A stretch of 36,686 bases of DNA, taken from positions 1 to 36,686 of the forward strand of contig CALVDX010000018.1 of NCBI GenBank assembly GCA_944326425.1, given 5' to 3'. Below the pieces are notes generated by a model, which had not been told where the DNA came from, ran no database searches, and was given only the letters and a program-made list of their open reading frames with translations. The stretch is from Candidatus Gastranaerophilales bacterium. GTDB taxonomy: Bacteria; Cyanobacteriota; Vampirovibrionia; Gastranaerophilales; Gastranaerophilaceae. The number at the start of each line of letters is the position of its first letter. The stretch's first letter is position 1. Positions 1,458-36,180 of this stretch are shown here, one piece after another. The translations under genes and the position numbers were made by a program.

Positions 1458-4286
1458 ATGAGACTACAGCCCGTAGGTGCAATTAAGAGTGCGCCCATAC
1501 AATCAAGGAACTTAAAAGCAAAGGGGAATAACGCTTTACAGGAAACGAAGACCAATAATGTTAACTTTACCGGCAATCCAAATCATGTAATTTTTTATGT
1601 TGCAGAGTTTCCTGATTACAATAAAAAGGGCGGAGTTGCAAATGTCGGCGGGTACTATGAAAAAATGCCCGGTATTGAAGCAGCTATAGTCCAGTCCTAC
1701 TATAATGGACAAAAAGATTATAACAACAAGGGCGAATATACAGGACTCATTCAACCGTGGCAATTTGATGCTAACTGCCGCTATGAAGGTCTTAAAAACC
1801 AGTATTTTTATGTTAAGTTTGATACAGATAAAAAAAATATTAAAACAGAGACAACAACAAACCTTGCTAATAACATTGAAAAGAAAAATATTGTTATTCT
1901 GAAAAAAATAGCAGAAAAGAATGTAACATACGGAAAACAGCAGCCGGAGGATATTATACTATTCAAAGTAATGAATGCAGTTCCCGTAAAAAATGAAAAA
2001 GGTGAAATTACAGATTACAAACTTGAAGAACTGCCTAATGATCCGGTAACAGGGAAAACAAGAAACCACTTTTTAATATATTCAAAAGGTACAGCGGAAT
2101 TTAAAGTACCTTATGATGACGGCTCATACTCCTCCGATAAAACTAAAAACCCGGAAGCCTTCAGCAAATATAAACCAATGCCTTATCCGGAAAACAACCG
2201 AGCGTTTACAGAATTTAAAAAAGAAATTTGCGATGCAGTAATTACTACGGATAAAAGTAAATTTGATCCAAAAACTATCCACTGTTCTGACCCCCAAACA
2301 GTATACACTGCTTCCTTTATGAGAGAAGCCGCGATTAACGGAAATCCAGAATTCCAGCCGCAGGATGTTTCGCCAGCTTATACTATACATAATTTAAGAA
2401 TGGGATATACCGGAGAATGCGGCGGTTTGGACATGGCTTTGAATCTGGGACTTACTTCCGATGAAGTCGATATTATGCGAAAAGATCCCGAATTTATCAA
2501 GGCAGAAGAAAATGGAACACTTGATAAATATTTTGCAGAATACATGCCGGAATTAAAAGATTTCTTCGGCTCATTTAACCCGACACTTATTGCTTTTAAC
2601 CTCCGCAAAAATGGTTATATGACCGGACTTAACACCGTTTCGGATGGTTATGCAAAAGACGTTGCAAACAATCCCAATATTCCAACAGCCTTGCAGGGAG
2701 ATTGGAAAACCTTAATGGATCAAGAAAAGGCTATTGGTATTATGAACCCGTTTGAAGATCCCGGCTTCCACATCTTTAAAGGTGTTACAGGTATGGATGG
2801 CTATCTCGAAGCCGGAGTTAATAAAGCAAAAGAGCAACTTTCTAAGTTAGGCGGGGAGTATGCCGCTCTTGCCGAAGAAATCCATCCGTTTGCAGTCGTC
2901 GATGAATCTAAATTCCCAAAAGAAGAAAATGGAAATTACAAAGTTACTGAAGAAGCATACGACCATTATATAGACATTAAAAATATTAATAAAAAAGAAT
3001 TCTTAAACAGATTAACATCTAAATTCGATAAACTTAAAGATGCCGACAAAGATTTATATAACACGCTCATTGCCGGACGTGCCAACTGGAATGTTAATTT
3101 AATCGGCCGGATTGATGAAAATCTGCTGACGCCGGAAAAAATAAAGGACTTAAAAGTATACGTTTCCTGGGGCAGACTTGATTCACAAAAATCACCTGAT
3201 ATTGTAATGGATGCTTTTGATAAATATTGTACAGAACATCCCGAAGATGCAAAAAATTGTATTTTAATACTGGGCGGAGAAGCACCCGGAACGGAATATT
3301 CAGACAAAATTCTTGCAAAAGCTGAAATAATGGCAAGTAAATACAACGGGCATTTTAGTTTTATGGAATCTTTTGCTCCGGGTAAAATACTGGTATCTGT
3401 TGCAGAAATGGCATTATTACCATCCAGAGAAGCACCCTGCGAACTCACTGATTTGGAAACAATGCAATTCATGACATTGTTAACCGCAACAAATGCACAA
3501 GGTATGGCTGATAAAAATTTCGATCCTGCTATCGATGGTGAAGATAAAGCAACCAGCTTTAAAACCGAAAGCGGATATTATATTTCCACAAGCCAGATTG
3601 AAAATTGCAAACAAGCCGGTATTGGAGAACAGTGGAAAAAAGAATACGGGAAATTAATGGCGGATATAGCAAATGAACAAGCAAATAGAAAAGCTTCTGC
3701 CTTTAAAACCGATTTAGACTCTAACGAAACTCTTGAAAACTATATTAATGCTAATCCAAAACATAAAAAAGCTGTAGATGAATTGATTGACAAATATCGT
3801 TCCTTAATACTTGCCGCCGGAGTTGCCGTATGTATGGAACGGGGAGTAAGCCTGACAAAAGCTCAAAGAATGAAGATGGCAGAAAATGAATTGAATTTAA
3901 AAACCGGTTGGACAAATAATGAAGTCCTGACTAAACGTGGAAAAGCTTCAGCAGATTTGTATAAAGCAATCTTTGCATCAAAACCGGAGCAAGATACTGG
4001 CAAATACTCTACATCTTTCCTGGGTAAATTAAGAGAACACTTACAAGCAGTAAAGAATGATATAGAAATACGCCAAAATGCAGGTTCAACTCCGTCTATA
4101 AAACCATCATTCTGGGGTAAATACAGAAAAGTCATTACCTGGTCTGCTGCATCTGCGGCAATAGTGGGCGGAGGGGTTTACCTGTTTATGGCAAATAAAA
4201 ACAATGACTCCGGCAATAAACACGGAATGCACATTAAAAAACATCCGGGCAAACCACGCCCGCGGAAAATAAATATGAATGCATAA
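1458..4286 (+). CDS. GT5 glycogen/starch-synthase-like glycosyltransferase with C-terminal membrane anchor
   Basis: The 942-residue product has recognisable GT-B glycogen synthase landmarks: KKGGVANVGG (56-65, equivalent of the N-terminal KTGGLGDV loop), YTIHNL (near 306, equivalent of TVHN), SWGRLDSQKSPD (near 567, the donor-binding R and K), LILGGEAPG, and LLPSREAPCELTDLETMQF (near 653-671). Bacterial GlgA is about 480 residues, so roughly half the protein is insertions and a C-terminal extension ending in a hydrophobic helix (about 892-910) and a basic tail. In the last motif the usual PSR-F-E-PCGL reads PSR-E-A-PCEL, so the catalytic-site Glu is displaced. The N-terminus carries NNVNFTGN (33-40) before the domain, a motif type shared with other proteins here. 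Start supported by AGGAGG at 1447. Family assignment is good; activity is uncertain. Confidence 0.75.
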   Translation: MRLQPVGAIKSAPIQSRNLKAKGNNALQETKTNNVNFTGNPNHVIFYVAEFPDYNKKGGVANVGGYYEKMPGIEAAIVQSYYNGQKDYNNKGEYTGLIQPWQFDANCRYEGLKNQYFYVKFDTDKKNIKTETTTNLANNIEKKNIVILKKIAEKNVTYGKQQPEDIILFKVMNAVPVKNEKGEITDYKLEELPNDPVTGKTRNHFLIYSKGTAEFKVPYDDGSYSSDKTKNPEAFSKYKPMPYPENNRAFTEFKKEICDAVITTDKSKFDPKTIHCSDPQTVYTASFMREAAINGNPEFQPQDVSPAYTIHNLRMGYTGECGGLDMALNLGLTSDEVDIMRKDPEFIKAEENGTLDKYFAEYMPELKDFFGSFNPTLIAFNLRKNGYMTGLNTVSDGYAKDVANNPNIPTALQGDWKTLMDQEKAIGIMNPFEDPGFHIFKGVTGMDGYLEAGVNKAKEQLSKLGGEYAALAEEIHPFAVVDESKFPKEENGNYKVTEEAYDHYIDIKNINKKEFLNRLTSKFDKLKDADKDLYNTLIAGRANWNVNLIGRIDENLLTPEKIKDLKVYVSWGRLDSQKSPDIVMDAFDKYCTEHPEDAKNCILILGGEAPGTEYSDKILAKAEIMASKYNGHFSFMESFAPGKILVSVAEMALLPSREAPCELTDLETMQFMTLLTATNAQGMADKNFDPAIDGEDKATSFKTESGYYISTSQIENCKQAGIGEQWKKEYGKLMADIANEQANRKASAFKTDLDSNETLENYINANPKHKKAVDELIDKYRSLILAAGVAVCMERGVSLTKAQRMKMAENELNLKTGWTNNEVLTKRGKASADLYKAIFASKPEQDTGKYSTSFLGKLREHLQAVKNDIEIRQNAGSTPSIKPSFWGKYRKVITWSAASAAIVGGGVYLFMANKNNDSGNKHGMHIKKHPGKPRPRKINMNA

Positions 4287-4335: not shown

Positions 4336-6303
4336 TTACGACAATGCTTTATATTGTTCTTGTAATTGAGTGATACGTTCTTCATTTGCTTTTTTCATTG
4401 CATCTAATTCAGAGCCTTCAACTACTGTTCCACGGGTAGCCTGTACAGACTGCGGGTACACCCATCTGTTAAAATTAGAAGTTACATATATTTGAGGTGT
4501 ATTACACTTATTCCAATATTTTTTTATACCGTTACCTGTTTTTTTACCAATAGCAGCTTTTTTATTTAATACTATTTGTAAGAAGCCTTCATTCTTAGTC
4601 TCAAACTTTAACCCTTTGATTATATCATCTACTGATGATATATATGCTTCATCATTAGCAGGAGTGCTTGATAAATACCTTTTAATAAAACTTCTTGCTT
4701 CAGTCTTCTGTGCATCGGTTGAAAGTTGATTCTTAAGAACATTTGCATATCTTGTTAAATCGGCAGCTCTGGACTCTACTATTAAATTTGCTTTCATTGC
4801 TTGCTCTTGCGCCATTATTACTATATCATTGTACGATTTCATAACATCAGCTGTAGTACTTGGATTATTTCTCATTTGCTCCATTTTTGTTAAAGTCTCC
4901 TGAGCTATTTGTTCAAAACGACCTGCAGCACTCTTTTGTTTTGCCGGAGAATTCGCGTTATATAAACTTCTTGTCGCCGCCTTTATTCTGGTCAAAATAC
5001 GAAGTTTAAACTGCTGCTCCGGAGTTGCTGTATTTCCTAAGGCTCTAAGTCCACTAATTTGAGTATCTAAATCCGCCATTTTTTGAGTATAACCGCTTGT
5101 TCCAAACTTAGCAAATCTTACATTATATGCACCACGCGGAGCTATAGATTCCGCCATTTTTATCATATCATCAAATGCTGCAGCCGCCTCATCAGATAAA
5201 CCAGTATTAGAGGTCCTATATGTTTTTGCAGCATTTGCCAGACGTTGTAAATCATCAACTGCTTGTGTATATTCTGCATTTGTCTTTGCCTTATAAATAT
5301 TTTCATAGGCAGCCGCAATATCATCTGCATATTGTCTGTATTCAGTACCGGCACCCGGTATATCAGTTTTAAGTTTATTCAGGTTGTTGGTATATTTGTT
5401 TTCGTAATGAGAATACCCGAATTTAGAAACAAACTTGTCAATGCCTATTTTCATTTGATTAAAGTTTTGCCTGATAGCTTGTTTCATCCCGCCTGCTGCA
5501 CTTATATCCGCCTTAGCAGATTTTAAGCCCAGTTTAAACGATTGATCCAGACGCCATGTCTTAGGTGTTTGTACACCCAACTTATTAGCAGCATTAACAC
5601 CAACTTTTCTTATACCAAAAGCCGCCAATACTGTCTGCAATGTACCGGAACCAATGTTTTGCCAAGCTTTTTCTGCACCTTCATCCGTGGTTGTAGTGAT
5701 GGACTGAACAATACCAGTTCCGAGTGTTAAAGCACCGCCGGCCAAAGCCGCACCTGCAAGAACTGCACCTGCACCAGGTATCAGGAATGCAGCAACGCCA
5801 AGAGCTCCACCGACGACTAATGTTGTTGCGGCTTTCTTAAGACTGAAATGACCGTTTTCATCAAAAAACATATCAGTAACAAGATTAACGCAGCCTTTAC
5901 CGAAGTTGAAAAGTTTGTTTGTCCAGCTGATTTTACCATCATCTTTTCCATCCTCAGCAATATAGCCTGTTTCTTTATTAAAAGCCTCAGCATTTACACG
6001 TTGAACCCCCTGAGAAGTATTAACATCAACATAATCAGATAATTGAGCGCGCAGAGAAAAAGCTTCTTCCAATTGCACTTCTATATCCTTTTTTTGTTGT
6101 GCTTTTTCGGCAGCAGAAGGAGTTGCCGTATGAGTTCCGGAAGTGTCTGAAGATGTCACCGGTATGTATCCCGGCATCCCGCCCATTCCCATATTGCCCA
6201 TAAAATTAAGCGAAGAACCATATTGTTGAGCAGCATTTTGCAACATCCAATAATTCATTGGAGTAAATAATCCATACGGCGAATTTAAAAAATCGACTGA
6301 CAT
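4336..6303 (-). CDS. Large orphan protein with Gly/Ala-rich hydrophobic hairpin
   Basis: The 655-residue product is not recognised. It begins with an aromatic and Met-rich stretch with SLNFMGN (31-37) and a Gly/Met run, then a charged helix (65-90). A long hydrophobic Gly/Ala segment follows (about 160-200, two passes with PGAGAV in the middle), looking like a membrane-inserting hairpin or glycine zipper. The remaining 450 residues are helical and polar, with many Lys, Gln and Ala and probable coiled coils, ending in a Glu/Gln-rich helix. AAGGAG precedes the ATG. It is preceded by copy 2 of the two-block promoter element and ends against the convergent GT5-like gene. A role such as a secreted or membrane-associated structural protein is possible but not shown. 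Confidence 0.75.
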   Translation of the reverse strand: MSVDFLNSPYGLFTPMNYWMLQNAAQQYGSSLNFMGNMGMGGMPGYIPVTSSDTSGTHTATPSAAEKAQQKKDIEVQLEEAFSLRAQLSDYVDVNTSQGVQRVNAEAFNKETGYIAEDGKDDGKISWTNKLFNFGKGCVNLVTDMFFDENGHFSLKKAATTLVVGGALGVAAFLIPGAGAVLAGAALAGGALTLGTGIVQSITTTTDEGAEKAWQNIGSGTLQTVLAAFGIRKVGVNAANKLGVQTPKTWRLDQSFKLGLKSAKADISAAGGMKQAIRQNFNQMKIGIDKFVSKFGYSHYENKYTNNLNKLKTDIPGAGTEYRQYADDIAAAYENIYKAKTNAEYTQAVDDLQRLANAAKTYRTSNTGLSDEAAAAFDDMIKMAESIAPRGAYNVRFAKFGTSGYTQKMADLDTQISGLRALGNTATPEQQFKLRILTRIKAATRSLYNANSPAKQKSAAGRFEQIAQETLTKMEQMRNNPSTTADVMKSYNDIVIMAQEQAMKANLIVESRAADLTRYANVLKNQLSTDAQKTEARSFIKRYLSSTPANDEAYISSVDDIIKGLKFETKNEGFLQIVLNKKAAIGKKTGNGIKKYWNKCNTPQIYVTSNFNRWVYPQSVQATRGTVVEGSELDAMKKANEERITQLQEQYKALS

Positions 6304-10080: not shown

Positions 10081-10539
10081 ATGGTAGATAACAGGTCAGC
10101 AGGATTTTTCGGAATCGGAGGCGCGTTTAATTTTAAAAGCGGCGACATTTCCGGCACTGCGGCCAAAACCAATGACGAAAAATACGGTCCCGGAACAGAA
10201 TACGGAATAATCAACCGCGGCGAAGGAGAAGAAGAACAACTGTATCAGGAAGAATTTACGGACAGAAGCGCACAATTAAGAGCCACTCTTAACTCTCTTG
10301 CCATGATGAATGTCGCGGCCGTAATTAATTCTAAAAAACCCAAAAAGCATGAACAGCTTAATTTTAATGACTTAGAAAACGAAACAGAAGAAATTATTAA
10401 GGAAAATTCAAAACACGGACAAAAAGAAGAAGAGCCGGAAGAAAATAATCAGGAAGATAACCTGCTGGAAGAAAACGAACAAAATATCGATTTATTTCCG
10501 GACGATGAAGATGAGGAATTTGAGGAAGAAGAAATTTAG
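10081..10539 (+). CDS. Orphan protein with long acidic disordered tail
   Basis: The 152-residue product has a Gly/Phe-rich start (residues 8-22, SAGFFGIGGAFNFKS) and a short predicted helix in the middle (about 62-82, SAQLRATLNSLAMMNVAAVI). The C-terminal half is dominated by Glu and Asp (about 100-152), ending EEEEI. No domain is recognised and no signal peptide or membrane segment is present. The acidic tail suggests a disordered binding or charge-interaction region. It lies upstream of the secreted GH13 gene but about 100 bases apart, with promoter-like sequence between, so operon membership is uncertain. Confidence 0.65.
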   Translation: MVDNRSAGFFGIGGAFNFKSGDISGTAAKTNDEKYGPGTEYGIINRGEGEEEQLYQEEFTDRSAQLRATLNSLAMMNVAAVINSKKPKKHEQLNFNDLENETEEIIKENSKHGQKEEEPEENNQEDNLLEENEQNIDLFPDDEDEEFEEEEI

Positions 10540-14254: not shown

Positions 14255-17200
14255 TTATTTACCAAGTTTGTACTGGAAACCGCCCATAAAGCCGATACCT
14301 GTTCTACCACCGTTTCTGATAGTAAATTGAACATAACCGCCAAGTCTTTCTTTGAAGTTTTTAACAACACCTAAACCATATTCAAAATACGGGTGTTTCA
14401 TTCTTACATCATCCAATGTAACCTTTCCGGCTTGACCGTCAACACCGCCCATGATATTAAATACCATTTGCGCTGTACCGTAGATACTAAAGGTCTTTTT
14501 ATTCCAGATAACATTAACCCCTGGCGCTACATTTATACCATTGAGAAATCCTGAGTTCATACTTAAGTTACCGCCAAAAGTAGAACCGTAATTTTGATTA
14601 CCAAATATATTGTAAGCAACCATTGCAGTAGGCTGGATTATGAAGTTTTTCGGTAAATGGAAGTTATATGCTGATTTAGAAGCAACCCCTGCAAACCAGT
14701 TTCCTGTATTATCAGCAAGACCGGTTGCACCATAACCCATATTTCTTACATTCATTTCATTAGCATAGCCGCCGCCGTAAGCTAACAATGAAGTAAAGAA
14801 GTTGCCTTTATAAGCAGTAGCCATAGCACCGATTTGCCCGCCATTTTGATACATGCTTACAAAATCGTAATTTTGATGTCCGCCGTTATAAGCAACATAA
14901 GCGGTAGGAATTAACTTCCAGCCGTCTTTTAATTGTACAACCGGTAAGTCTGCACCTAAGATTGCACCATAAGCGTTGTTATCAACATGGAGCCCCTTCG
15001 TCATCGAAATATTTTCAAAGTTACCATAAGCTTTGAACCACAGACCGCCGTCTTTTTTACTGTATTGATACGGTCCAAATAGCGGATTAGCAGCAGCATA
15101 ACGGTTTGCTATTTCATCATCGCTGCTTGATCCGAATTGTCCGGATACTATTGCTGCATGGTCAAACAACAGGTTATTAAATGCTAATTGATTAGCGTAT
15201 TGGGCAACAGTTGCAACCTGTCCTCGATACATTTGCGGATTAACTGACTGCAATGAGCCGTTTATTACACCGCCGCCACCGCTTGTTGTCGTAACAAGGT
15301 ATTTACCAAGAGCAGTATTTGCCATAAACTGGCTGTCGCCGAGATTTGCAACTCCTGAGCCCGTTGCTGCATCAGCTATTAACTGTGTACCGTCAATAGT
15401 GAATGTATAATTATCCGGAGAGTTAACAAAATTAATACCTGTAATAATTATCTGGCTATCACCATTATAACTGCCGGCTACAATTTGATCCATTGCATCA
15501 CCACGTGGATCGTAATCAAATACCATATTGACATCAGTATTATGGTTTACATTACCATTAACGATAATTGAACCAACACTTCCGTCCTGCATATTGATTG
15601 TAGGAGTAGATGTAACTCCTGTAGAATTATCAATCGTCATGTCGTTGGTAATAGTCATATTGGTGAAGTTATTTAAAACACCATCTCTCAAAGTAAGGTT
15701 ACCTGTAAGAGTAGTCGTATCACCATTAAGAGTTAATTCTGAGTTTTCTCCGGCAATAGAAATAGTTTGACCGGTTACGTCTCCGTTAACTACGGCTGTA
15801 GAATCGCCGTTAACTACAAAATAGTTATTAAAATTAACATCGCCCTGAACAGCAAAGTCTGAACCGTTAGAAACACCGATCATACCATCTGTTGTCAATC
15901 CGCCCAGAACGTTAAGCGTAGAACTATCAACCGCTACATTTTGATTAGTTGATACATTACCTCCAATAGTAACATTACTGCCATTGGTTACCCCTAAAGA
16001 TGTACCGTTAGTTGAATTTTCAGCGATTAAGTCGCCTAAAACATTTAAAGTAGAGCTTTCAATATCAACAGTTCCGATCATTGAAGTAACACTGCCGCCA
16101 GAAGAAAGGCTTGCCCCGTTAACAACACTTATATTTCCTACAGCGCTAACATCCTCTGCTACAGAAACAGCAGCACCGTCTTTAACTCCGAGGGAAGCAT
16201 TATCATTGGTTGTATTTGCTACCAGCAAACCTTCCCCAATACTAACAGAAGTACCTTCACCGCTTGCTTCAAAGAGTTTTGAATCTAAAGCACCGCCGAC
16301 ACTAACAACAGAACCGTCGTGAATACCAATGTTATCTGTTATAATATCTTCCCCAACATTAACAATTGAAGAATTAATATTTATAGCTGAGTTAGGATTT
16401 GCATCCGAACCGCTTCCGAGGCTGCCAAGTATATTGAGGGTACCGTTATCAATATCAATTAAATTTTCAGCTTCAAGAGAATTATTAACAGTTAAAGTAC
16501 CGTTATCAACGATTACCTGCCCGTAGTCGCCGCCGCCGTTAACAAGAATATGTGCATCAGTTGTAAGAGTACTATCGCTTACATTTATTCCGCTGAGATT
16601 TAATACAGCACTCTGATCATCACCCGCTAAATCGAGGGAGCCGCCGGATACATTTATAGAACCGTTATAATTAGCCAGCGATGATTCTATAGAAGTTGAA
16701 CCGGCTCCTGATTTATTGATAGATGCATCAACTGAATCAGAAACAATTGTCGGATTGTAGGCAATATTTGTTGTTTCATTAGCAAAATTCAATTCGGCAT
16801 TGCCGGCAAGATTAACAGTTGAATCTTCTTTTATATAAGCATTATCTTTATATGTTAGAGAGGTTTCATTACCGAGATTAATTGTATCAGCATCAACACC
16901 CGAACCGTCGCCGGCTGTCAGGTGGCTTACGCCCGCACCTTGAACCAATGATATAGAATTATCAGCCGCTTCACCGGCAATAACCGTATTATTAAACAGA
17001 CCTAAACCGCCGCCGGTAACCGTAATACTTTGAGTAGAGCCGTCACTGTTCAAATATGTAAGAGCCCCGTTGGTAATCGCCGTTTCAGCATCAAGAACCG
17101 TTTTGCCTTCAAGCTCATCAGTTCCTGCCTTACCTTGAACAGCGTTATAAATATTTACTGTACCATAACCGCCATTTGTATTTGTTGTAACACCAACACC

Positions 17201-20200
17201 GGATTCAAGGATTGCACCGTCAGCGAGAGTAAGCGTACCGCCGTCAATGGTATTTGTTGCACCGCTTAAAGTCCCGCCATTCTGAATATTAAGCGTACCG
17301 CCATGAACTGTATTAGAGTTCCCGCCAAGGACAGCCCCTTCCTGAATAGTAATAGAGCCGTCATTTAAAATATTATTGCCATTAAAGAATACCGAACCTG
17401 ACTGTGCAATCACTGTACCCATATTTTGAGTGTAGGTACCGGTAAACCCGCTGTTATCAGATTGAATAATAACCGTACCGACGCCTAAAGGATTCTGGGT
17501 AGTTGAACCATCATCTTTTATAACTGTTTCAACAATTTCATCAACCAGAACAGCACCTGTACCGGTAACAACATTATTTTCGGCCAGTATCAACTCTGCA
17601 CCGTTCTGCGGAGCAAGCTGAAGCGTAGACCCGTTCTCAACTTCAAGACCGGAAGCGGTTGTTGCATTATCACTTAAAATCAAATCAACACTTTTAGCGT
17701 CAGTACCTATTGTTAACGGACTGTTTTTATCAGTACCTGAAATATCAGCATTTATTACCGTAACATTTTGAGTTAAGACGTTATCTGTAACGATAACATC
17801 TGTATCATCCATAAAGAAGTTATTTACGTCACCATTAATAGCAATATGGCCATCACCAACCTGCAAACCAGCATTATCAATAGTTGCAGTTTCACCATAT
17901 CTCATGACTAAATCTACATTATCTGTTATAGTAACAACATCATTTTCAGCAATAGAAACATTCCCTATTAATTCAAATGTTCCAGCATCAATTGTCATAT
18001 TTCCGTTTGTTAAATCCAAAGTTGCATTATCTAATGTAAGCGAAGCATTCTCTTCTTTTTGAGAATATGTGTTAAGTGTTAATGTTGTATTAGAGGCAGT
18101 AACACTACCGCTGTTTGTTAAGTTTGCAGATGAATATTCTCCGTTAATAACAACATTTGCACTACTTGCTACTGTAGTTGAACCTTTATCCTCAAATGTA
18201 CCGTTTATAGTAACATTAGCGGCTTCTGCAATAGCAGTAGTTACACCACTCTCTGTAGTAACGGTACTGTCTTCAACTATTTCAGCACCGTCATTAAGAT
18301 TAAATGACCCTGCTTTAATGGTACTTTCACCGCCAAAGAAATCTGAACTAACACTTGTTGTCCCGCTGTCCTGAGTATAAGTACCGTCAAAATCCTTATT
18401 GACAGAACCTTTTTCTAACGCAAGTATAGCCCCGCTGTTAGTTATACTTGTTTCAGCAGCTCCGGCTATCCCGCCTCCGATAGAAACGGTATTAGTTCCG
18501 GTAATATCAACTGAAGCAGCTGCAGATGATACGGAATCAACATCCAGATAAATATCATTAGCCGTACCATTTGCAGTATTACCCGTAAAAGTTATACTCC
18601 CGTCAGCGGTGTCGAGGATTGTTTCACCAGCCGTATAAATGGCACCGCCCGCAGTCGCAGCCTCGTTATTTTTAAAAGTTGTATTTCCTGAAATAGTCAA
18701 TTCATTTTTATTTGTATTTCCATAAGCTGAATTATAAACAGCTCCGCCATAACCATCTGAAGTATTGCCAGTGAAAGTTGCCTCCGCATCAACAGAAACA
18801 CCGCCGCCATAGTTAGCAACAGCACCGCCGTTTCTTGATGCATGATTACCCTCGAATAAAGCACCCGTTCCTATTGATATTGTTGTATCCTTAGTTCCGT
18901 CAAAATCGTTTGCATTAAAATTAAATACCGCACCGCCGAGCGTACCGGAATTATTTACAAACTCAGCATCATTACCAACCACAACGCTTGCCGCCATGTC
19001 TCCGCTGCCGGACTCACTGTAAATTGCACCGCCTGCATATCCTTTGGCAGTGTTATTATAGAACTTCGCGCCATTACCTATTTCTAATTCCGAGCGCTGG
19101 TTATGAACAGCACCACCCTGCCCTTCAGCAGTATTGCCTATAAAACTTACGTTATCACCAATAGTCAATGATGTTTCTATACTTCCGCTGTCGGTATTTG
19201 ATATGGCACCTCCAACACTTGCACTATTCCCTGCAAATGTGACATTATTGCCAATTTCCATAGTCCCGCCGGCATCATTCATTAAAGCACCGCCCATATT
19301 TGCGCTGTTGCCGGAACCTGCCGTCACAGTAATTGTACCGTCTTGGTTAATTGTAATTGAACCTTGCCCGAAAGAAGTACCATCCTGAACTTCCGCATTT
19401 CCTTTGTTGTAAATTGCACCGCCATAGCCTGTTGCAGAATTAGATGTAAAACTTCCACCCACATCAATAGTCGCATCGTTACAGATTGCGCCGCCATTAC
19501 CGGTCGTAGCCTCGTTAGCACTAAATACGGCATTAACAGCATTGAATACTGCATTATCAATTATTGTACCGTCTAAAACAGTATTACTAACAGCTCCGCC
19601 GCTTGCTGCGCTATTGCCGGTAAACGTTGCCCCATTAGCAGTGACAGAGGCTGTTCCGCCGGATTGTACTTCGTTACGGATAGCACCGCCGCTGCCGTTT
19701 GCCTTATTTCCCTCAAAACCAGCACTTCCTATATTCAATGAATAAGATGCATTGCTGCTATATGAAGAATTGTGGATTGCACCGCCATCAGTAGAAGCCT
19801 CGTTTTCAATAAACTGCGTGCCATTCCCTATTAAACTGTTGCCGTCAACCCAATAACTGCCTGTAACAAGCGCACCGCCCGCGCCCCCTTCAGCTTTGTT
19901 ACCGAAGAATACAACCCCTTCGCCGATAGAAGCAGACATATCACCGATATAAACAGCTCCTCCGAGACCAGTTGAAGCATTATTGGAGAAATTTACGCCG
20001 CTGCTAATTGTTAATAGACCACCGCCGCTTGCAGCAGCTTCAGAATAAATTGCACCACCCACCGTTGCTTTATTATTTGATATCTCCGAATTTGCCGCAA
20101 CAGTAATTGCACTCCCGTCCGTCGTAATAACAGCACCGCCGGCAAGCCCTGAAACTGACGAATCAATACCTGACAGACTGCCTACTTCTGTTGGAGTACT

Positions 20201-20311
20201 GCCACCGCCTGTTACAACAACACGATCATCCGCTAATACAGCACTATTAAAAGAGCAGAATGACAACATCAATAAGGATGCAATAACCTGCTTCATTTTA
20301 CTATTTTCCAT
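14255..20311 (-). CDS. Giant autotransporter adhesin with Pmp-like repeats
   Basis: The 2018-residue product has a signal peptide (about residues 1-27, ending AVLA before DDR). A first passenger part (about 45-600) contains sixteen GGA[I/V/L] units alternating with F-x-x-N/GN-x-A units, the pattern of chlamydial polymorphic membrane proteins. A second passenger part (about 600-1720) is low-complexity beta-helix with Thr, Asn, Gly and repeated NVLG-type units. The C-terminal beta-barrel (about 1750-2018) starts near GGLWFKAYGNFE and finishes with alternating strands. The passenger has few Cys or Lys, as expected for a surface protein. GGAG precedes the ATG. It would be secreted by type V secretion and displayed outside the cell, probably for adhesion. 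Parts of the passenger may be released. Several plus-strand ORFs opposite it are by-products of its composition. Confidence 0.9.
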   Translation of the reverse strand: MENSKMKQVIASLLMLSFCSFNSAVLADDRVVVTGGGSTPTEVGSLSGIDSSVSGLAGGAVITTDGSAITVAANSEISNNKATVGGAIYSEAAASGGGLLTISSGVNFSNNASTGLGGAVYIGDMSASIGEGVVFFGNKAEGGAGGALVTGSYWVDGNSLIGNGTQFIENEASTDGGAIHNSSYSSNASYSLNIGSAGFEGNKANGSGGAIRNEVQSGGTASVTANGATFTGNSAASGGAVSNTVLDGTIIDNAVFNAVNAVFSANEATTGNGGAICNDATIDVGGSFTSNSATGYGGAIYNKGNAEVQDGTSFGQGSITINQDGTITVTAGSGNSANMGGALMNDAGGTMEIGNNVTFAGNSASVGGAISNTDSGSIETSLTIGDNVSFIGNTAEGQGGAVHNQRSELEIGNGAKFYNNTAKGYAGGAIYSESGSGDMAASVVVGNDAEFVNNSGTLGGAVFNFNANDFDGTKDTTISIGTGALFEGNHASRNGGAVANYGGGVSVDAEATFTGNTSDGYGGAVYNSAYGNTNKNELTISGNTTFKNNEAATAGGAIYTAGETILDTADGSITFTGNTANGTANDIYLDVDSVSSAAASVDITGTNTVSIGGGIAGAAETSITNSGAILALEKGSVNKDFDGTYTQDSGTTSVSSDFFGGESTIKAGSFNLNDGAEIVEDSTVTTESGVTTAIAEAANVTINGTFEDKGSTTVASSANVVINGEYSSANLTNSGSVTASNTTLTLNTYSQKEENASLTLDNATLDLTNGNMTIDAGTFELIGNVSIAENDVVTITDNVDLVMRYGETATIDNAGLQVGDGHIAINGDVNNFFMDDTDVIVTDNVLTQNVTVINADISGTDKNSPLTIGTDAKSVDLILSDNATTASGLEVENGSTLQLAPQNGAELILAENNVVTGTGAVLVDEIVETVIKDDGSTTQNPLGVGTVIIQSDNSGFTGTYTQNMGTVIAQSGSVFFNGNNILNDGSITIQEGAVLGGNSNTVHGGTLNIQNGGTLSGATNTIDGGTLTLADGAILESGVGVTTNTNGGYGTVNIYNAVQGKAGTDELEGKTVLDAETAITNGALTYLNSDGSTQSITVTGGGLGLFNNTVIAGEAADNSISLVQGAGVSHLTAGDGSGVDADTINLGNETSLTYKDNAYIKEDSTVNLAGNAELNFANETTNIAYNPTIVSDSVDASINKSGAGSTSIESSLANYNGSINVSGGSLDLAGDDQSAVLNLSGINVSDSTLTTDAHILVNGGGDYGQVIVDNGTLTVNNSLEAENLIDIDNGTLNILGSLGSGSDANPNSAININSSIVNVGEDIITDNIGIHDGSVVSVGGALDSKLFEASGEGTSVSIGEGLLVANTTNDNASLGVKDGAAVSVAEDVSAVGNISVVNGASLSSGGSVTSMIGTVDIESSTLNVLGDLIAENSTNGTSLGVTNGSNVTIGGNVSTNQNVAVDSSTLNVLGGLTTDGMIGVSNGSDFAVQGDVNFNNYFVVNGDSTAVVNGDVTGQTISIAGENSELTLNGDTTTLTGNLTLRDGVLNNFTNMTITNDMTIDNSTGVTSTPTINMQDGSVGSIIVNGNVNHNTDVNMVFDYDPRGDAMDQIVAGSYNGDSQIIITGINFVNSPDNYTFTIDGTQLIADAATGSGVANLGDSQFMANTALGKYLVTTTSGGGGVINGSLQSVNPQMYRGQVATVAQYANQLAFNNLLFDHAAIVSGQFGSSSDDEIANRYAAANPLFGPYQYSKKDGGLWFKAYGNFENISMTKGLHVDNNAYGAILGADLPVVQLKDGWKLIPTAYVAYNGGHQNYDFVSMYQNGGQIGAMATAYKGNFFTSLLAYGGGYANEMNVRNMGYGATGLADNTGNWFAGVASKSAYNFHLPKNFIIQPTAMVAYNIFGNQNYGSTFGGNLSMNSGFLNGINVAPGVNVIWNKKTFSIYGTAQMVFNIMGGVDGQAGKVTLDDVRMKHPYFEYGLGVVKNFKERLGGYVQFTIRNGGRTGIGFMGGFQYKLGK

Positions 20312-20548: not shown

Positions 20549-21424
20549 ATGCAAATACATCCAATTTTTCGACACAAACCAGAAACAACTAATATGACGT
20601 TCTGCGGTAAAAACCACAATTTATTAGAACTTTTACACAGGAATTATACACTTAATTCAAAAAATATAGCTGATAAAATTATAACAAACGGCCGCCTGAT
20701 TTCAGCAAATGGAGAGAAGGCAAAATATAATATATCACCCGCAGGAAACCCGCCTAAAATTCCCGCAGCAGGGATTATAAAAGGGCTAATGGAAATCATC
20801 ATCGACCGTCCCAAAAAATTGATTACAAGTATAAAAATATTTTCAGGGAAACAGCCGGAAACATTACTTGAAGAAACTCAATATACCTACAACAAAAAAG
20901 GACAAATTATAAGGACACATAAACAAACTTTTTCTCCCAACGGTATTCAGCATAGTATTAAAACCAACATAAAATACGAAGACAACAGTATTACGATGAA
21001 AAAAGAAATAGATGAAGGTGTAAAAGATACTACGACCATTATTACATCAGTAAACGGGAAAAAGCTAATTCTTAAATCCGGCAAAAATCAAAACGGCACA
21101 ATTGAACATTTTAAATATGAAGAGGGGAAAACACTATACTCAAATACTGTCTCAAAACACTCAGGTGGGCAGTTTGAAGCATTCGGAGACCCCCATACGG
21201 GCGAAATGGTATTTTCGCGCAGCACAATTAATCCGACAAATGCCGGCGAATATATAGAGTTATTATCAAACGGCAGCTACGAAAAGCAAGTTCTGTCAAG
21301 GAACGGTCATATAGCGAAAAAAGAAATACCGCCTTCTGTAGCAGACGATTTTATTCATCAGAGAATCGATTTAATCACACCGCAAAATGAAATACTTACA
21401 AAACTTGAAGAGTACGGACTATAA
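20549..21424 (+). CDS. Orphan beta-rich protein with N-terminal NMTFCGK motif
   Basis: The 291-residue product is not recognised. Residues 15-21 (NMTFCGK) match the motif NVNFTGN of the GT5-like protein and NINFTSK of the GH15-like protein. A Pro/Ile-rich section follows, then about 150 residues of probable beta strands with alternating polar and hydrophobic residues (for example [19 protein letters not shown]), loosely like YD/RHS repeats but without a clear repeat period. There is no signal peptide. CGGAG precedes the ATG. Its stop overlaps the convergent rfbA stop by 6 bases with no terminator between. Confidence 0.7.
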
Positions 21425-27986: not shown

Positions 27987-28307
27987 ATGTTAATATCCAA
28001 CATCACACAAGGAAATAACTATTCCCCGCCATTTCAAAAATTTTTAAAAGTCAAGGGAAAACTCCATCGTCTTGAAAACCTTAAAGATGAAATCCGGCAG
28101 CAAAAACAGAATTTAATACCTTTTATATCAAAACAAAGTCCGCATAAGGGTACATTATATGTTTTAACAGGAAAAGACGCAGATAAATTTCTTGATTTAA
28201 TTCCCCAGGTTTTATTTAGAAACCGGAGAACTAAACCGGAAAAATATATGAAGACAAAAGCAAAAGAAGTAAAACCTTCAAAACTTATTAAAGAACTCAT
28301 CGGTTAA
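27987..28307 (+). CDS. Small basic orphan protein downstream of merR
   Basis: The 106-residue product is rich in Lys, with an N-terminal polar section, a charged helix (about 25-42, RLENLKDEIRQQKQNLIP) and a basic C-terminus (NRRTKPEKYMKTKAKEVKPSK). No domain, signal peptide or membrane segment is visible. AAAGGAAC precedes the ATG, 13 bases after the merR stop, so the two are almost certainly one transcript. Its stop shares the TTAA at 28304-28307 with the convergent tatC stop. Confidence 0.65.
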   Translation: MLISNITQGNNYSPPFQKFLKVKGKLHRLENLKDEIRQQKQNLIPFISKQSPHKGTLYVLTGKDADKFLDLIPQVLFRNRRTKPEKYMKTKAKEVKPSKLIKELIG

Positions 28308-31906: not shown

Positions 31907-33694
31907 TTACATGCCTGCAGCAGCTTTGTCTTTTTCAACGGTATACCTCAACATTTTGTTTAAAAAATGCGGCAGGGTAAAACCTAAAATCGCCATATTG
32001 CTTAATAATGACACCCAGTAAAGTGCGGCACCGATTGTTTTTGTTTTTTTGAGCGCTTCAGGCGGAATGGATTTCATCTTATCAAGTTTTTTAAAGTTTC
32101 TAATACCAAGAGTAAACCCTTTCCAAAAGCCGATTTTCTTATCGCCATACTTATCGGTTTTCATGATTTTGGTACCTAAGTACTTATCAGAAAGTCTGCC
32201 AAGAATATTATTTATCAGGAAATCTCCGCCAAAAAACATAATAAAAGTACCGCCTTCTCTTGCAGTCCTGTCGCGTAATTCATATTTATCACGCGAGGAC
32301 GGAAGCTTTGCAAGAAACCCTGTAAATGCCCATTTTAAAGCATTAACTGTTTTGGACATACTTACACCCGAAGTATAATTAAAATTAGAAGCATTATTTT
32401 TTATAAAATTAGCTTTTGGTGCTGTCAGCCCTTTAGTTACAGATTTTGATATTATTATCCCCGGAATAAAGGCAAACGCAAGAGTTCCGAGTGCGCGTTT
32501 TAATTTACTCTGTCTGTGTTCTTTTTTAGAAACTTCTTTTTCCTCAAGCATATCAAACGTTGCTGAAAAACCTTTTCTGCCCGTTTTTAATTCTGTAATA
32601 CCCGTTGCAATCCATGGAATACTTCCCATTAATAATCCCGTCGACATAAAATCAGAACGTAGAATCCCTTCATGTGCCTTCAAGAGCTTTTGTTTTAATT
32701 CCTCCTCCCTGCCTTTAAATCTTAAAAGAATTTCATCAAACTCTTTTTCAGCCTTTAAAATTTTTGCAGAAGATTTTATGCCTTCAATCATTGTTTTGGT
32801 ATCAGAAGTTAGAAATTCTTTTGAAACCTGAATAATTTTCTTCTCGTTATTTTTAAAATTGGAAACAATCCCGTTATGTTTAAGAAAAAACTTATTGTAC
32901 TTTGGCAGCAAAAACAACGGCATTACAAATGCAAAACTAACACTTAGTGCAGACATACCTATTCTTTCAAGAGCCTCGGCACGTGTATTGGACATTATAG
33001 CGTTAGGAATCGCACACCCGCCGATATTCGTAAGCCCGCGATTTAAAAGTGTATGGTTTTGAATAAATGCTGTAGCATTATAAAGTCCGTTTCCAAACAC
33101 CGGCGAATTTCCGTAAATTCTTTTATCAAGTTTCCTGTAGTCCTCCGGCGTCATATCTTCACTGTAAAACTGTTTTTCATACTCAATCCCTTTTGGAAAA
33201 ACTTTTTGTTTAAGTATTTTATACCCTTCTTCAGGATTATCAGTATTCAGAACCAGTTTTTCAAGCGGACATTTTATTTTGGAGTTTTTATCCAAAACAC
33301 TGTCAACAATTTCATCTGTTTCATATTTTACACCGTTTTTGTCAAAGAGTTCCTTTGCGGATTTTGTCATAACAGGTGTTTGAACATGTTTTGCTCTGCC
33401 GTATACCATAAGCATTGCAGATGCTTTACTGATTCTTCTGTCCGTTATATAACAGTTTGAAAAATCGTTGTTATTATCCTCAAGTGCCAGAAATAACGGT
33501 TTAAGATTTCTTTGGTTATAATACTTTATTTCCCCGTCTTTATAAATTCCAAGGGTATGTTTATCAAGGTTTTTAAGCATTTCTGTCTTAATATCAGAAT
33601 CAGGTATTACCTGCGCCTGTCCGCCGGAAACATTTTCCGCAGGCTGATAATATTTTACCCCCGGGGTTATAGTACTTATTGCGTTACACTTCAT
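31907..33694 (-). CDS. DUF1893 domain fused to a multi-pass membrane protein
   Basis: The 595-residue product has, after a short leader, residues 45-165 that match DUF1893 (a cytidine-deaminase-like fold known from Thermotoga TM1506). The matching parts are TLGIYKDGEIKYYNQRNLKPLFLALE, given as residues 47-72, then DRRISKASAMLMVYG (85-99) and KIKCPLEKLVLNTDNPEEG (139-157). The remainder is basic with about five hydrophobic segments (near 246-262, 347-362, 393-410, 476-495, 565-585). It may be an integral membrane protein, with the DUF1893 part cytoplasmic. No function is known for such a fusion. AAAGAACA before the ATG is a weak ribosome site. It ends 77 bases before the AKR gene starts. Confidence 0.7.
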   Translation of the reverse strand: MKCNAISTITPGVKYYQPAENVSGGQAQVIPDSDIKTEMLKNLDKHTLGIYKDGEIKYYNQRNLKPLFLALEDNNNDFSNCYITDRRISKASAMLMVYGRAKHVQTPVMTKSAKELFDKNGVKYETDEIVDSVLDKNSKIKCPLEKLVLNTDNPEEGYKILKQKVFPKGIEYEKQFYSEDMTPEDYRKLDKRIYGNSPVFGNGLYNATAFIQNHTLLNRGLTNIGGCAIPNAIMSNTRAEALERIGMSALSVSFAFVMPLFLLPKYNKFFLKHNGIVSNFKNNEKKIIQVSKEFLTSDTKTMIEGIKSSAKILKAEKEFDEILLRFKGREEELKQKLLKAHEGILRSDFMSTGLLMGSIPWIATGITELKTGRKGFSATFDMLEEKEVSKKEHRQSKLKRALGTLAFAFIPGIIISKSVTKGLTAPKANFIKNNASNFNYTSGVSMSKTVNALKWAFTGFLAKLPSSRDKYELRDRTAREGGTFIMFFGGDFLINNILGRLSDKYLGTKIMKTDKYGDKKIGFWKGFTLGIRNFKKLDKMKSIPPEALKKTKTIGAALYWVSLLSNMAILGFTLPHFLNKMLRYTVEKDKAAAGM

Positions 33695-34488: not shown

Positions 34489-36180
34489 ATGAGTATTTCA
34501 ATTTCACCAATCAGGAGTTTCGGGTGTGGTTATTCTGCTGCTTCTAAACAGCAAAAACAAAAAGTAAGCCAACCTGCACAGAATTTTACACAAAACATTA
34601 ACTTCACATCAAAAGTTCCTCAGGCAAAACATATCACCAGAACACTTATAGGTCTCAGCCTGGCTGCATACACCCCGCTAATCAAATCTTTCAGTAATTA
34701 TAGTATTCCTGTTCATAACAAAAATATTTCGGACCGGCTCAAAGAAACATATACTCCGGAAGAATTTAACGAGCTTTACACCTTTGCAGAGAAGAAAGGC
34801 GTTTTTGATTATGTAATGAACGGTAAAACAGGGCTTGTAAAAACTTCTTTTATATCAACAAAAGAAAATCCGTTAATGGCAGATTTAATCTGGATAACAG
34901 ATACCTGCCACAATATGGATTTAGTTAAAAATAAAGAACCTGAAAAATGTACAGAAGTATTCAATAATGTAACCCAGTTCTATGAACACCAGCAGGGGAA
35001 TTTTGATAACACAATATCTAACCCTCAATCATACTGGCATAATGGTTTAATATGGGCTGGAGAGCAACACGGCGGGATTGGCCATTGTTTTATAACCAAA
35101 ACTAAAGAAGCACATCCGTGGTACCCCAAAACCAGACTCGAATCCGTAGGAAACTATCTTCAAACTGCTGCGGATTTAATAACAACAGGACTTAACGGCG
35201 GAAGCTACGGTTACAAAACAACCGATGAAATTCCGGACAGTGTTTGTACCGCCGTTTCAAACTGTACAGCATACTTAAAAGCAATAGAATACCCGACTGC
35301 CCGTTCATGCGGTGCATGGGAGGAACAAACGTTCCTTAATTCACTCACCAGCGATACCTCTATTTGCAATGAAGGGCTTCGTAAGATTATGGGGATTATG
35401 TATGATGAAACCCAAAACCCTGAAATACTCAAACTGCGGGAAAGAATTCTTAATACAAAACACGGAAATGTTTTTAATGATAAAGAAGGGCTTCAGCAAT
35501 TATTATCAAAAGGAGAAAAACGTATAATTGATACACCTGATTACGAAACAACCTGCTATGATAATGTCCCGCCAATTAAACCTGGAGAAGAAAAATGCGT
35601 AGAAAGAAAGTACGATGCGGCAATGAGTTTTATGCCGCAAACAGAAACACTTGTAAAAAATGATATTATAAAAGATTCAGAAAAAAAACTTGAACTTCTG
35701 GATGAACTCAGCTGGGCTATTGTTAGAGAAAACGGTGCAATAAGGTATCCCGGAGATGAATATTTAAAACTTGATTATCATAAAGATAAACACAAGTTTT
35801 CTCAAGACTTTGAAGCTGAATGGTTCTTGGTAACCGAGATTTCAAAAGGATACGGCAGTGTTGCAAAGGAACTTTTAGATGCAAAAGAACGCGGAGAAAA
35901 AACATCAGAAGAGATTAACCCCTTGCTGAACAAAGCCATGACAAAAGAAACAGAATATATTAACCGCGGCTTTGCAAGGATTACGGCTCCAAACAGTATA
36001 AAATCAAACGGCTTTCCCTGTCCGGAATATAAAGTTCCGGAGGCCTACGAAGCAATAACCGGAGCCGATGGAAAAATAAGATATGTTCCTGGCGCACATC
36101 CGCTTGCCTGGGCAGAATCATCATTATACAGCGCCTCAAAACTATTCGCAGAAAATTTGGCCCGATATGCCGGTGTCTGA
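34489..36180 (+). CDS. GH15-like (glucoamylase/phosphorylase-kinase-alpha type) protein
   Basis: The 563-residue product is predicted to be an alpha/alpha barrel of the GH15 family, which cleaves terminal glucose from alpha-glucans or acts as a regulatory domain. Supporting motifs are PTARSCGAWEEQTFLNSL (near 267-284, equivalent to the W-E-E general-acid motif), YDAAMSFMPQTETLV, VRENGAIRYPGDEYL (GH15 R-Y-x-G-D pattern), and HPLAWAESSLYSASKLFAENL (near 536-556, the C-terminal base region). The N-terminus has polar residues with NINFTSK (36-42) and a hydrophobic stretch (52-65) that may be a membrane anchor or signal anchor. It shares the N-terminal motif with the GT5-like protein. TAGGAG precedes the ATG. 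The family call rests on motifs read by eye. Confidence 0.65.
   Translation: MSISISPIRSFGCGYSAASKQQKQKVSQPAQNFTQNINFTSKVPQAKHITRTLIGLSLAAYTPLIKSFSNYSIPVHNKNISDRLKETYTPEEFNELYTFAEKKGVFDYVMNGKTGLVKTSFISTKENPLMADLIWITDTCHNMDLVKNKEPEKCTEVFNNVTQFYEHQQGNFDNTISNPQSYWHNGLIWAGEQHGGIGHCFITKTKEAHPWYPKTRLESVGNYLQTAADLITTGLNGGSYGYKTTDEIPDSVCTAVSNCTAYLKAIEYPTARSCGAWEEQTFLNSLTSDTSICNEGLRKIMGIMYDETQNPEILKLRERILNTKHGNVFNDKEGLQQLLSKGEKRIIDTPDYETTCYDNVPPIKPGEEKCVERKYDAAMSFMPQTETLVKNDIIKDSEKKLELLDELSWAIVRENGAIRYPGDEYLKLDYHKDKHKFSQDFEAEWFLVTEISKGYGSVAKELLDAKERGEKTSEEINPLLNKAMTKETEYINRGFARITAPNSIKSNGFPCPEYKVPEAYEAITGADGKIRYVPGAHPLAWAESSLYSASKLFAENLARYAGV

What the first reader, a model, noticed from the sequence alone, without database searches (positions are those of the whole stretch)
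1458..1580. Recurrent N-terminal N-x-x-F-x-G type motif on unrelated proteins
Four unrelated proteins carry a similar short motif within their first 42 residues, before the recognisable domain: NVNFTGN (GT5-like, 1458), NINFTSK (GH15-like, 34489), NMTFCGK (291-aa orphan, 20549) and SLNFMGN (655-aa, ends 6303). AFNFKSG in the acidic protein at 10081 may be a fifth. Two of these are alpha-glucan enzymes. The motif sits in a low-complexity leader unlike a Sec signal. It may be a targeting or sorting tag, possibly undescribed, and common in this lineage.
Basis: partly seen in the sequence, partly recalled or inferred. Interest (0 to 1): 0.65.

Follow-up and report, generated by a model that had tools for sequence, protein, structure and literature searches.

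The report
Lineage-specific two-part N-terminal protein leader
Many unrelated proteins of a group of non-photosynthetic gut relatives of cyanobacteria begin with the same kind of short, disordered two-part tag (about 'MKInpI ... [V/I/P][N/S/A]F-x-G'), which looks like an undescribed sorting or export label; the machine that reads it is not known, and a second flagellar-type export gate found across the group is the leading candidate.

Summary
N-x-x-F-x-G is not enriched near N-termini. A refined signature is: box 1, M-[K/R/Q]-[I/V]-x-x-[I/V], a variable polar linker, then box 2, [P/I/V]-[N/S/A/T]-F-x-[G/S/A].

In polar N-termini box 2 is enriched in this genome (26 proteins; shuffles 8.0, reversed pattern 6) and in held-out genomes of the same order (22; shuffles 11.0, reversed 6). 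It is not enriched in class-level outgroups or other phyla. In GT5 orthologs both boxes are as conserved as the enzyme (74%, 75%), while the linker is not (27%). Carriers are diverse: GT5, GH77, GH15-like, AAA, metallophosphatase, PLD, exonuclease, RelA/SpoT-like and PRPP-synthetase proteins, and orphans. Some duplicate housekeeping enzymes. The lineage is Gastranaerophilales (Vampirovibrionia).

Best reading: an N-terminal sorting leader. BMC shells are absent. Genomes of the order keep a flagellar-type export gate even where flagellin is missing. I favour export through that gate, but the link is circumstantial; which machine reads the leader is the most doubtful point.

The parts
1458..1478 (+). 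Box 1 (MRLQPVG) of the GT5-like protein's leader
   Evidence: Mean pairwise identity 74% across 7 genus orthologs, as high as the enzyme domain (73%); M-[KR]-[IVL]-x-x-[IV] in GT5 orthologs of other families and in public Gastranaerophilales loci
1479..1556 (+). Variable polar linker of the leader
   Evidence: 27% identity in the same alignment; GT5 leaders are N/S/Q-rich and D/E-poor
1557..1577 (+). Box 2 (NVNFTGN) of the GT5-like protein
   Evidence: Residues 35-39 75% identical, F invariant in 7 of 7; VSFTG, VNFKG, ISFAG, ISFRS, INFRG in others
1458..4286 (+). GT5-like (glycogen/starch-synthase-like) protein, 942 aa, in addition to an ordinary GlgA elsewhere in the genome
   Evidence: Pfam PF08323 E 4e-7, over cut-off; TIGR02095 E 2e-14, below cut-off; GT-B fold matches on a low-confidence model; unleadered GlgA at L046:13017
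4336..6303 (-). 655-aa protein with box 2 but a Y/M/N/Q-rich leader and no box 1
   Evidence: Orthologs keep LAFTG, FAFTG, PSFMG, PSFTG
6193..6213 (-). Box 2 (SLNFMGN) of the 655-aa protein
10123..10143 (+). AFNFKSG in the 152-aa acidic protein; doubtful member (no box 1, orthologs not tested)
20549..20569 (+). Box 1 (MQIHPIF) of the 291-aa orphan
   Evidence: MQIHPI kept in three genus members, MKITPIS and MKIYSIS in others
20591..20611 (+). Box 2 (NMTFCGK) of the 291-aa orphan
   Evidence: TFCGK / NFCGK / TFCGK / NFKAT, then GFQNK and GFQNL in two
34489..34509 (+). Box 1 (MSISISP) of the GH15-like protein
   Evidence: 83% identity in five genus orthologs; MSIS[IV] in all
34594..34614 (+). 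Box 2 (NINFTSK) of the GH15-like protein
   Evidence: INFTS, INFTS, INFGT in three of five genus orthologs, lost in two; PAFEA, PTFSG, VSFGK, PSFKG in other genera
34489..36180 (+). GH15-like protein, 563 aa (family assignment tentative)
   Evidence: GAWEE and WAES motifs conserved in orthologs but no match in Pfam, NCBIfam or PDB sequences
28026..28040 (+). Possible degenerate box 2 (PPFQK) of the 106-aa protein at 27987, which also has a box-1-like start (MLISNI)
   Evidence: Similar protein in G012 (L204:13291) with NIHFEKF (by eye)
33674..33694 (-). Box-1-like start only (MKCNAIS) of the 595-aa DUF1893 protein
   Evidence: G004 ortholog starts MKCNSIN; no box 2

Best explanation
These proteins share a two-part N-terminal leader that works as a sorting (most likely export) signal in Gastranaerophilales. 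Shown: a conserved first seven residues (M-[K/R/Q]-[I/V]-x-x-[I/V]), a free polar linker and a conserved [P/I/V]-[N/S/A/T]-F-x-[G/S/A] box just before the folded domain, on dozens of unrelated proteins, restricted to this order in the sample. Inferred: the leader is disordered and a receptor reads both boxes. Inferred and less certain: the receptor belongs to the second flagellar-type (type III-like) export gate that these bacteria keep even when they have no flagellin, so that duplicated enzymes, among them alpha-glucan enzymes, are delivered out of the cell or into another cell.
For: Enrichment in own and held-out genomes, none in outgroups or other phyla. Co-occurrence of the boxes: odds ratio 3.6, p 5e-4 with the strict box 2; with the loose box 2, 37 polar leaders of the order have both boxes against 0 of 363 in controls. 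Box 1 in 44 of 1820 proteins of the order against 7 of 1380 in controls, p 1e-5. Conserved-variable-conserved pattern in GT5, kept across families and in five loci from public genomes, two of them titled Gastranaerophilales. Leader rich in N, S, Q and poor in D, E, G, as in type III signals (general knowledge). Leadered second copies of GlgA and PRPP synthetase beside unleadered ones. Member genes lie next to each other (11 adjacent pairs, 3.3 expected, 0 of 1000 permutations). FliP in every genome of the order searched; the 25 without flagellin all have FliP, 24 have FlhA/SctV and 24 FlhB. Precedent for glycogen-metabolism enzymes as secreted proteins or type III substrates in Chlamydiae (PMC3722199, PMC7935935, PMC9251005).
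Against: Nothing links leader and gate directly. Class-level outgroups G071 and G076 have two FlhA, FliP and FlhB copies but no enrichment of the motif. The own assembly has a second FliP and FlhB but not FlhA2/FliF2, perhaps an assembly gap. Two GH15-like orthologs lost box 2. The G060 sample had no strict hit, though loose examples are visible. With a loose box-2 pattern, box-1 proteins hardly exceed shuffles. AAA ATPases, PRPP synthetase and RelA/SpoT-like enzymes are odd cargo unless delivered into a cytoplasm.
Confidence: 0.38

Rival explanations
1. The leader is a cytoplasmic docking motif: the two boxes bind a hub (membrane, cell pole, scaffold, polysaccharide granule or a non-BMC shell) and concentrate a set of enzymes there without export.
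For: Several carriers need cytosolic substrates (GT5, PRPP synthetase, AAA, RelA/SpoT-like). Alpha-glucan enzymes recur (GT5, GH77, GH15-like, amylase-like), which would fit a glucan granule. Box 2 lies at the leader-domain border, as a short linear motif might.
Against: The conserved first seven residues point to a signal read from the N-terminus. Exonuclease, PLD, metallophosphatase, M16 peptidase and kinase-like carriers do not form one pathway. No BMC shell; encapsulins not searched.
Confidence: 0.3
2. The leader is a processing or stability signal (for example cleavage at F-x-G by a dedicated peptidase, or a degron or chaperone site), with location unchanged.
For: Conserved box at the leader-domain border, free linker.
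Against: Spacing from box 2 to the domain varies, no candidate peptidase found, and duplicates of housekeeping enzymes would not obviously need it.
Confidence: 0.12
3. The leader is a signal for the canonical flagellar export system.
For: Own genome has a full flagellar gate and flagellin.
Against: A genome without flagellin and without the canonical FlhA (G012) still has leadered proteins, though its count of 7 against 4.1 is weak alone.
Confidence: 0.07
4. Chance: N/S/Q/I/K-rich low-complexity N-termini throw up F-x-G by composition, and orthologs share it by descent.
For: The literal motif is not enriched; loose patterns are near shuffled levels; the core pattern was sharpened by eye on this genome.
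Against: Held-out genomes, reversed pattern, substitution of F and composition-keeping shuffles all speak against it; the linker diverges to 27% identity while both boxes stay at 74-75%.
Confidence: 0.08

Closest known systems
Type III secretion signals and effectors (for example the shared N-terminal translocation motif of SPI-2 effectors; chlamydial GlgE, TreS-Mak and phosphoglucomutase; secreted chlamydial GlgA)
   Same: Disordered polar N-terminus rich in N/S/Q; unrelated enzymes, orphans and alpha-glucan enzymes as cargo; a flagellar/type III-type gate in the genomes
   Different: Two defined boxes shared across an order; substrate status untested; outgroups with the gate lack the boxes; the second gate is flagellar-like and below the cut-offs of both FlhA and SctV models
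Organelle transit peptides (plastid, mitochondrial)
   Same: Divergent N-terminal extension with weak consensus on duplicated housekeeping enzymes
   Different: Bacterium, no known target compartment, no amphipathic helix shown
Encapsulation peptides of bacterial microcompartments and N-terminal cargo-loading segments of family 2 encapsulins
   Same: Terminal tag on unrelated enzymes
   Different: No BMC-domain protein in 59 genomes; encapsulins not searched; far more cargo types than usual
Sec/Tat and lipoprotein signal peptides
   Same: N-terminal position
   Different: No hydrophobic core; ordinary Sec-type leaders occur on other proteins of the same window and genome

Membership tests
Type III secretion substrate | Disordered, polar, uncleaved N-terminal signal within the first ~30-60 residues | tested here: inconclusive
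   Composition fits; residues 1-75 of the GT5 model have pLDDT under 50, but the whole model is poor (mean 53); cleavage not testable
Type III secretion substrate | Export gate (FlhA/SctV, FliP/SctR, FlhB/SctU) in the genome | tested here: met
   Own genome has two FliP and two FlhB genes and one full FlhA; second set found across the order
Type III secretion substrate | Signal tracks presence of the system | tested here: inconclusive
   Every searched genome of the order has at least part of the gate, so there is no variation to test; outgroups with a second gate lack the boxes
Type III secretion substrate | Dedicated chaperone or co-regulation | not tested
   -
Type III secretion substrate | Shown to be secreted by the system | not testable with these tools
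   -
Sec signal peptide | Hydrophobic core after a basic N-terminus | tested here: not met
   The window's leaders have none; those of the GT5-like, GH15-like and 291-aa proteins pass the hydropathy filter
BMC encapsulation peptide | BMC shell genes in the genome | tested here: not met
   PF00936 absent in 59 genomes, own included; controls ring
GH15 (GH15-like protein) | Match to the family profile | tested here: not met
   No Pfam, NCBIfam or PDB sequence match; only WEE-type motifs conserved
GT5 (GT5-like protein) | Match to PF08323 over cut-off | tested here: met
   30.4 bits against 22.7; KxGG and other blocks invariant in orthologs

The most novel reading that the evidence does not exclude
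Gastranaerophilales carry a flagellum-independent type III-like secretion machine, retained across the order even where flagella are lost, and export dozens of enzymes (including alpha-glucan enzymes and duplicated housekeeping enzymes) marked by a new two-box N-terminal signal, perhaps into other cells of the gut.
Probability: 0.2. Interest if true: 0.9.

Novelty: new variant of a known kind. Interest (0 to 1): 0.6.

Why it matters
If it is a sorting signal, it gives a sequence handle on dozens of unannotated proteins per genome in a common but little-studied gut lineage, and it makes a question testable: what the partial flagellar gene sets of non-motile Gastranaerophilales (noted in PMC5877343 and PMC3787301 and read there as reduction or incompleteness) are for.

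Tried and rejected
Literal N-x-x-F-x-G: not enriched. Profile from GT5 box 2 over all proteins: only a weak tail, because the box is short and most proteins lack the leader; the leader filter was needed. BMC shell: absent. Anti-phage defence: only generic AAA matches (IetA/TRIP13-like) for leadered ATPases, nothing for the five window proteins. GH15 by PDB sequence or profile: nothing. Structure of the GT5 protein: poor with six sequences. Literature: no paper found on such a leader or on a type III system in Melainabacteria/Vampirovibrionia.

Full report
Where the window lies. The window is contig C18 of a 2.01 Mb genome. Its GT5-like protein has relatives in loci titled 'Candidatus Gastranaerophilales bacterium' (two), 'Cyanobacteria bacterium SIG29' and two less precisely titled genomes, so the genome belongs to that order of Vampirovibrionia (Melainabacteria). 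This is inferred from those matches.

The observation. The five strings are present as stated. The literal pattern N..F.G is not enriched in N-terminal 60-residue segments (8 against 11.2 expected from internal sequence and 7.8 from shuffles). The narrower N..F[TCMK][GS] is (10 against 2.8; 7 against 2.6 without the window).

What is conserved. Orthologs of the GT5-like protein from several families of the order have a completely diverged leader that ends in VNFTG, VSFTG, VNFKG, VSFQG, MSFGG, LAFKS, ISFAG, ISFGG, ISFSG, LSFKG, ISFGN, LAFTG or LSFSG and, in the public loci, VSFKG, ISFKG, VSFRG, ISFRS and INFRG. The leader usually begins M-[K/R]-[I/V/L]-x-x-[I/V]. In seven genus members the first seven residues are 74% identical, the linker 27%, box 2 75% and 100 residues of the domain 73%. 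Glycogen synthases of other phyla mostly start directly at the domain, as does the ordinary GlgA of this genome (L046:13017). The GH15-like, 291-aa and 655-aa families show the same with variations: the GH15-like family keeps box 1 in five of five genus members but box 2 in three; the 655-aa family keeps box 2 in a Y/M/N/Q-rich leader without box 1.

Statistics. The pattern [PIVL][ANSVGTP]F.[GSA] was written down from this genome and the ortholog families, then counted in samples of other genomes. Restricted to proteins whose N-terminus is polar and non-hydrophobic, it is found in 26 of 132 here (reversed pattern 6, shuffles 8.0+-2.6), in 22 of 179 in samples of four other genomes of the order (G012, G037, G058, G060; reversed 6, shuffles 11.0+-3.3, 1 of 300 shuffles as high), in 7 of 116 in three class-level outgroups (reversed 11, shuffles 6.4), and in 7 of 247 in loci of other phyla (reversed 7, shuffles 14.2). 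Replacing F by another residue removes the excess in this genome (65 per thousand F against 15-28 for L, I, V, Y, W, M, K, N, Q, E). The two boxes go together (strict box 2: odds ratio 3.6, p 5e-4; loose: 5.0, p 7e-7), and no control protein has both (0 of 363). The box-1 expression is met by 44 of 1820 proteins of the order and 7 of 1380 controls. Caveats: patterns were tuned by eye on this genome; orthologs between genomes are not independent; with the loosest box-2 pattern, box-1 proteins hardly exceed shuffles; G060 had no strict hit. The excess over shuffles in this genome (18 in 722 proteins) suggests some 40-50 true carriers per genome; this is an estimate.

Carriers. Pfam finds a metallophosphatase/5'-nucleotidase, three AAA ATPases, an M16 peptidase, an LRR-like and an amylase-like protein (the last two weak) among carriers of this genome, and GH77, AAA, RNase T, PLD, metallophosphatase, DHH, RelA/SpoT-like and PRPP-synthetase proteins among carriers of relatives; a kinase-like protein was seen by eye only. 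Most others have no family. The leadered PRPP synthetase of G058 is one of two copies; the other resembles the single copy of most genomes tested, and G037 has the same pair. Member genes are adjacent more often than expected (11 pairs, 3.3 expected); tandem paralogs contribute to this.

Candidate machinery. FHIPEP (FlhA/SctV) occurs in 76 of 79 genomes, mostly in two full copies; one class scores about 790-890 bits, the other about 670-740 and lies in an operon FliE-FliF/SctJ-like-unknown-FliH/SctL-FlhA2. FlhA2 is below the NCBIfam cut-offs for both FlhA and SctV. FliP and FlhB also come in two copies in most genomes with flagellin. In the 25 genomes of the order without flagellin, FliP is present in 25, FHIPEP in 24 and FlhB in 24. 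The own genome has two FliP and two FlhB genes, but FliF2 and FlhA2 are missing from its assembly, although FliF2 is 95-98% identical among its six congeners; an assembly gap is likely but unproven. Papers on the group describe partial flagellar gene sets and interpret them as reduction or incompleteness (PMC5877343, PMC3787301); none found describes a type III system. BMC shell proteins are absent.

Interpretation. That the leader is real and lineage-specific I hold at about 0.85. That it sorts proteins follows from position, conservation pattern and duplicates, but is inferred. That it is an export signal for the second gate rests on joint presence, on a type III-like composition and on the chlamydial precedent (PMC3722199 reports GlgA in host cytosol and suggested Sec; PMC7935935 reports preliminary type III secretion of GlgE and TreS-Mak; PMC9251005 a phosphoglucomutase as type III substrate). 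The outgroups, which have the gate and not the boxes, speak against a simple link. A cytoplasmic docking motif is nearly as likely.

Noticed in passing
L167:5108-11062, L168:5080-11066, L169:9978-15735, L170:5690-11578, L171:4433-12210: A second flagellar/type III-type export operon (FliE, FliF/SctJ-like, unknown, FliH/SctL, FlhA2, in L171 also FliI), kept across the order including genomes without flagellin; FliF2 is 95-98% identical within the genus where the GT5 protein is 65-75%.
   Followed up: partly
L051:11078-12547: A 489-aa protein whose C-terminal two thirds match the FlhA cytoplasmic domain; a similar partial match occurs in many genomes of the order.
   Followed up: no
window 4336-6303; hits: The 655-aa protein contains a 'DGKDDGKI' segment followed by a Gly/Ala-rich hydrophobic hairpin that recurs in many otherwise different proteins across the order.
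   Followed up: partly
window 14255-20311 (-): A 2018-aa autotransporter-like repeat protein with an ordinary signal peptide.
   Followed up: no
L132:6283-7311 (-) (G058) and G037:C2:469164-470141: A second, leadered PRPP synthetase about 43-45% identical to the housekeeping one.
   Followed up: partly
window 4150-4283: The GT5-like protein ends in a hydrophobic segment (VITWSAASAAIVGGGVYLFM) and a basic tail, so it may be membrane-anchored at its C-terminus; orthologs L018 (G053) and L021 (G058) lack it.
   Followed up: no
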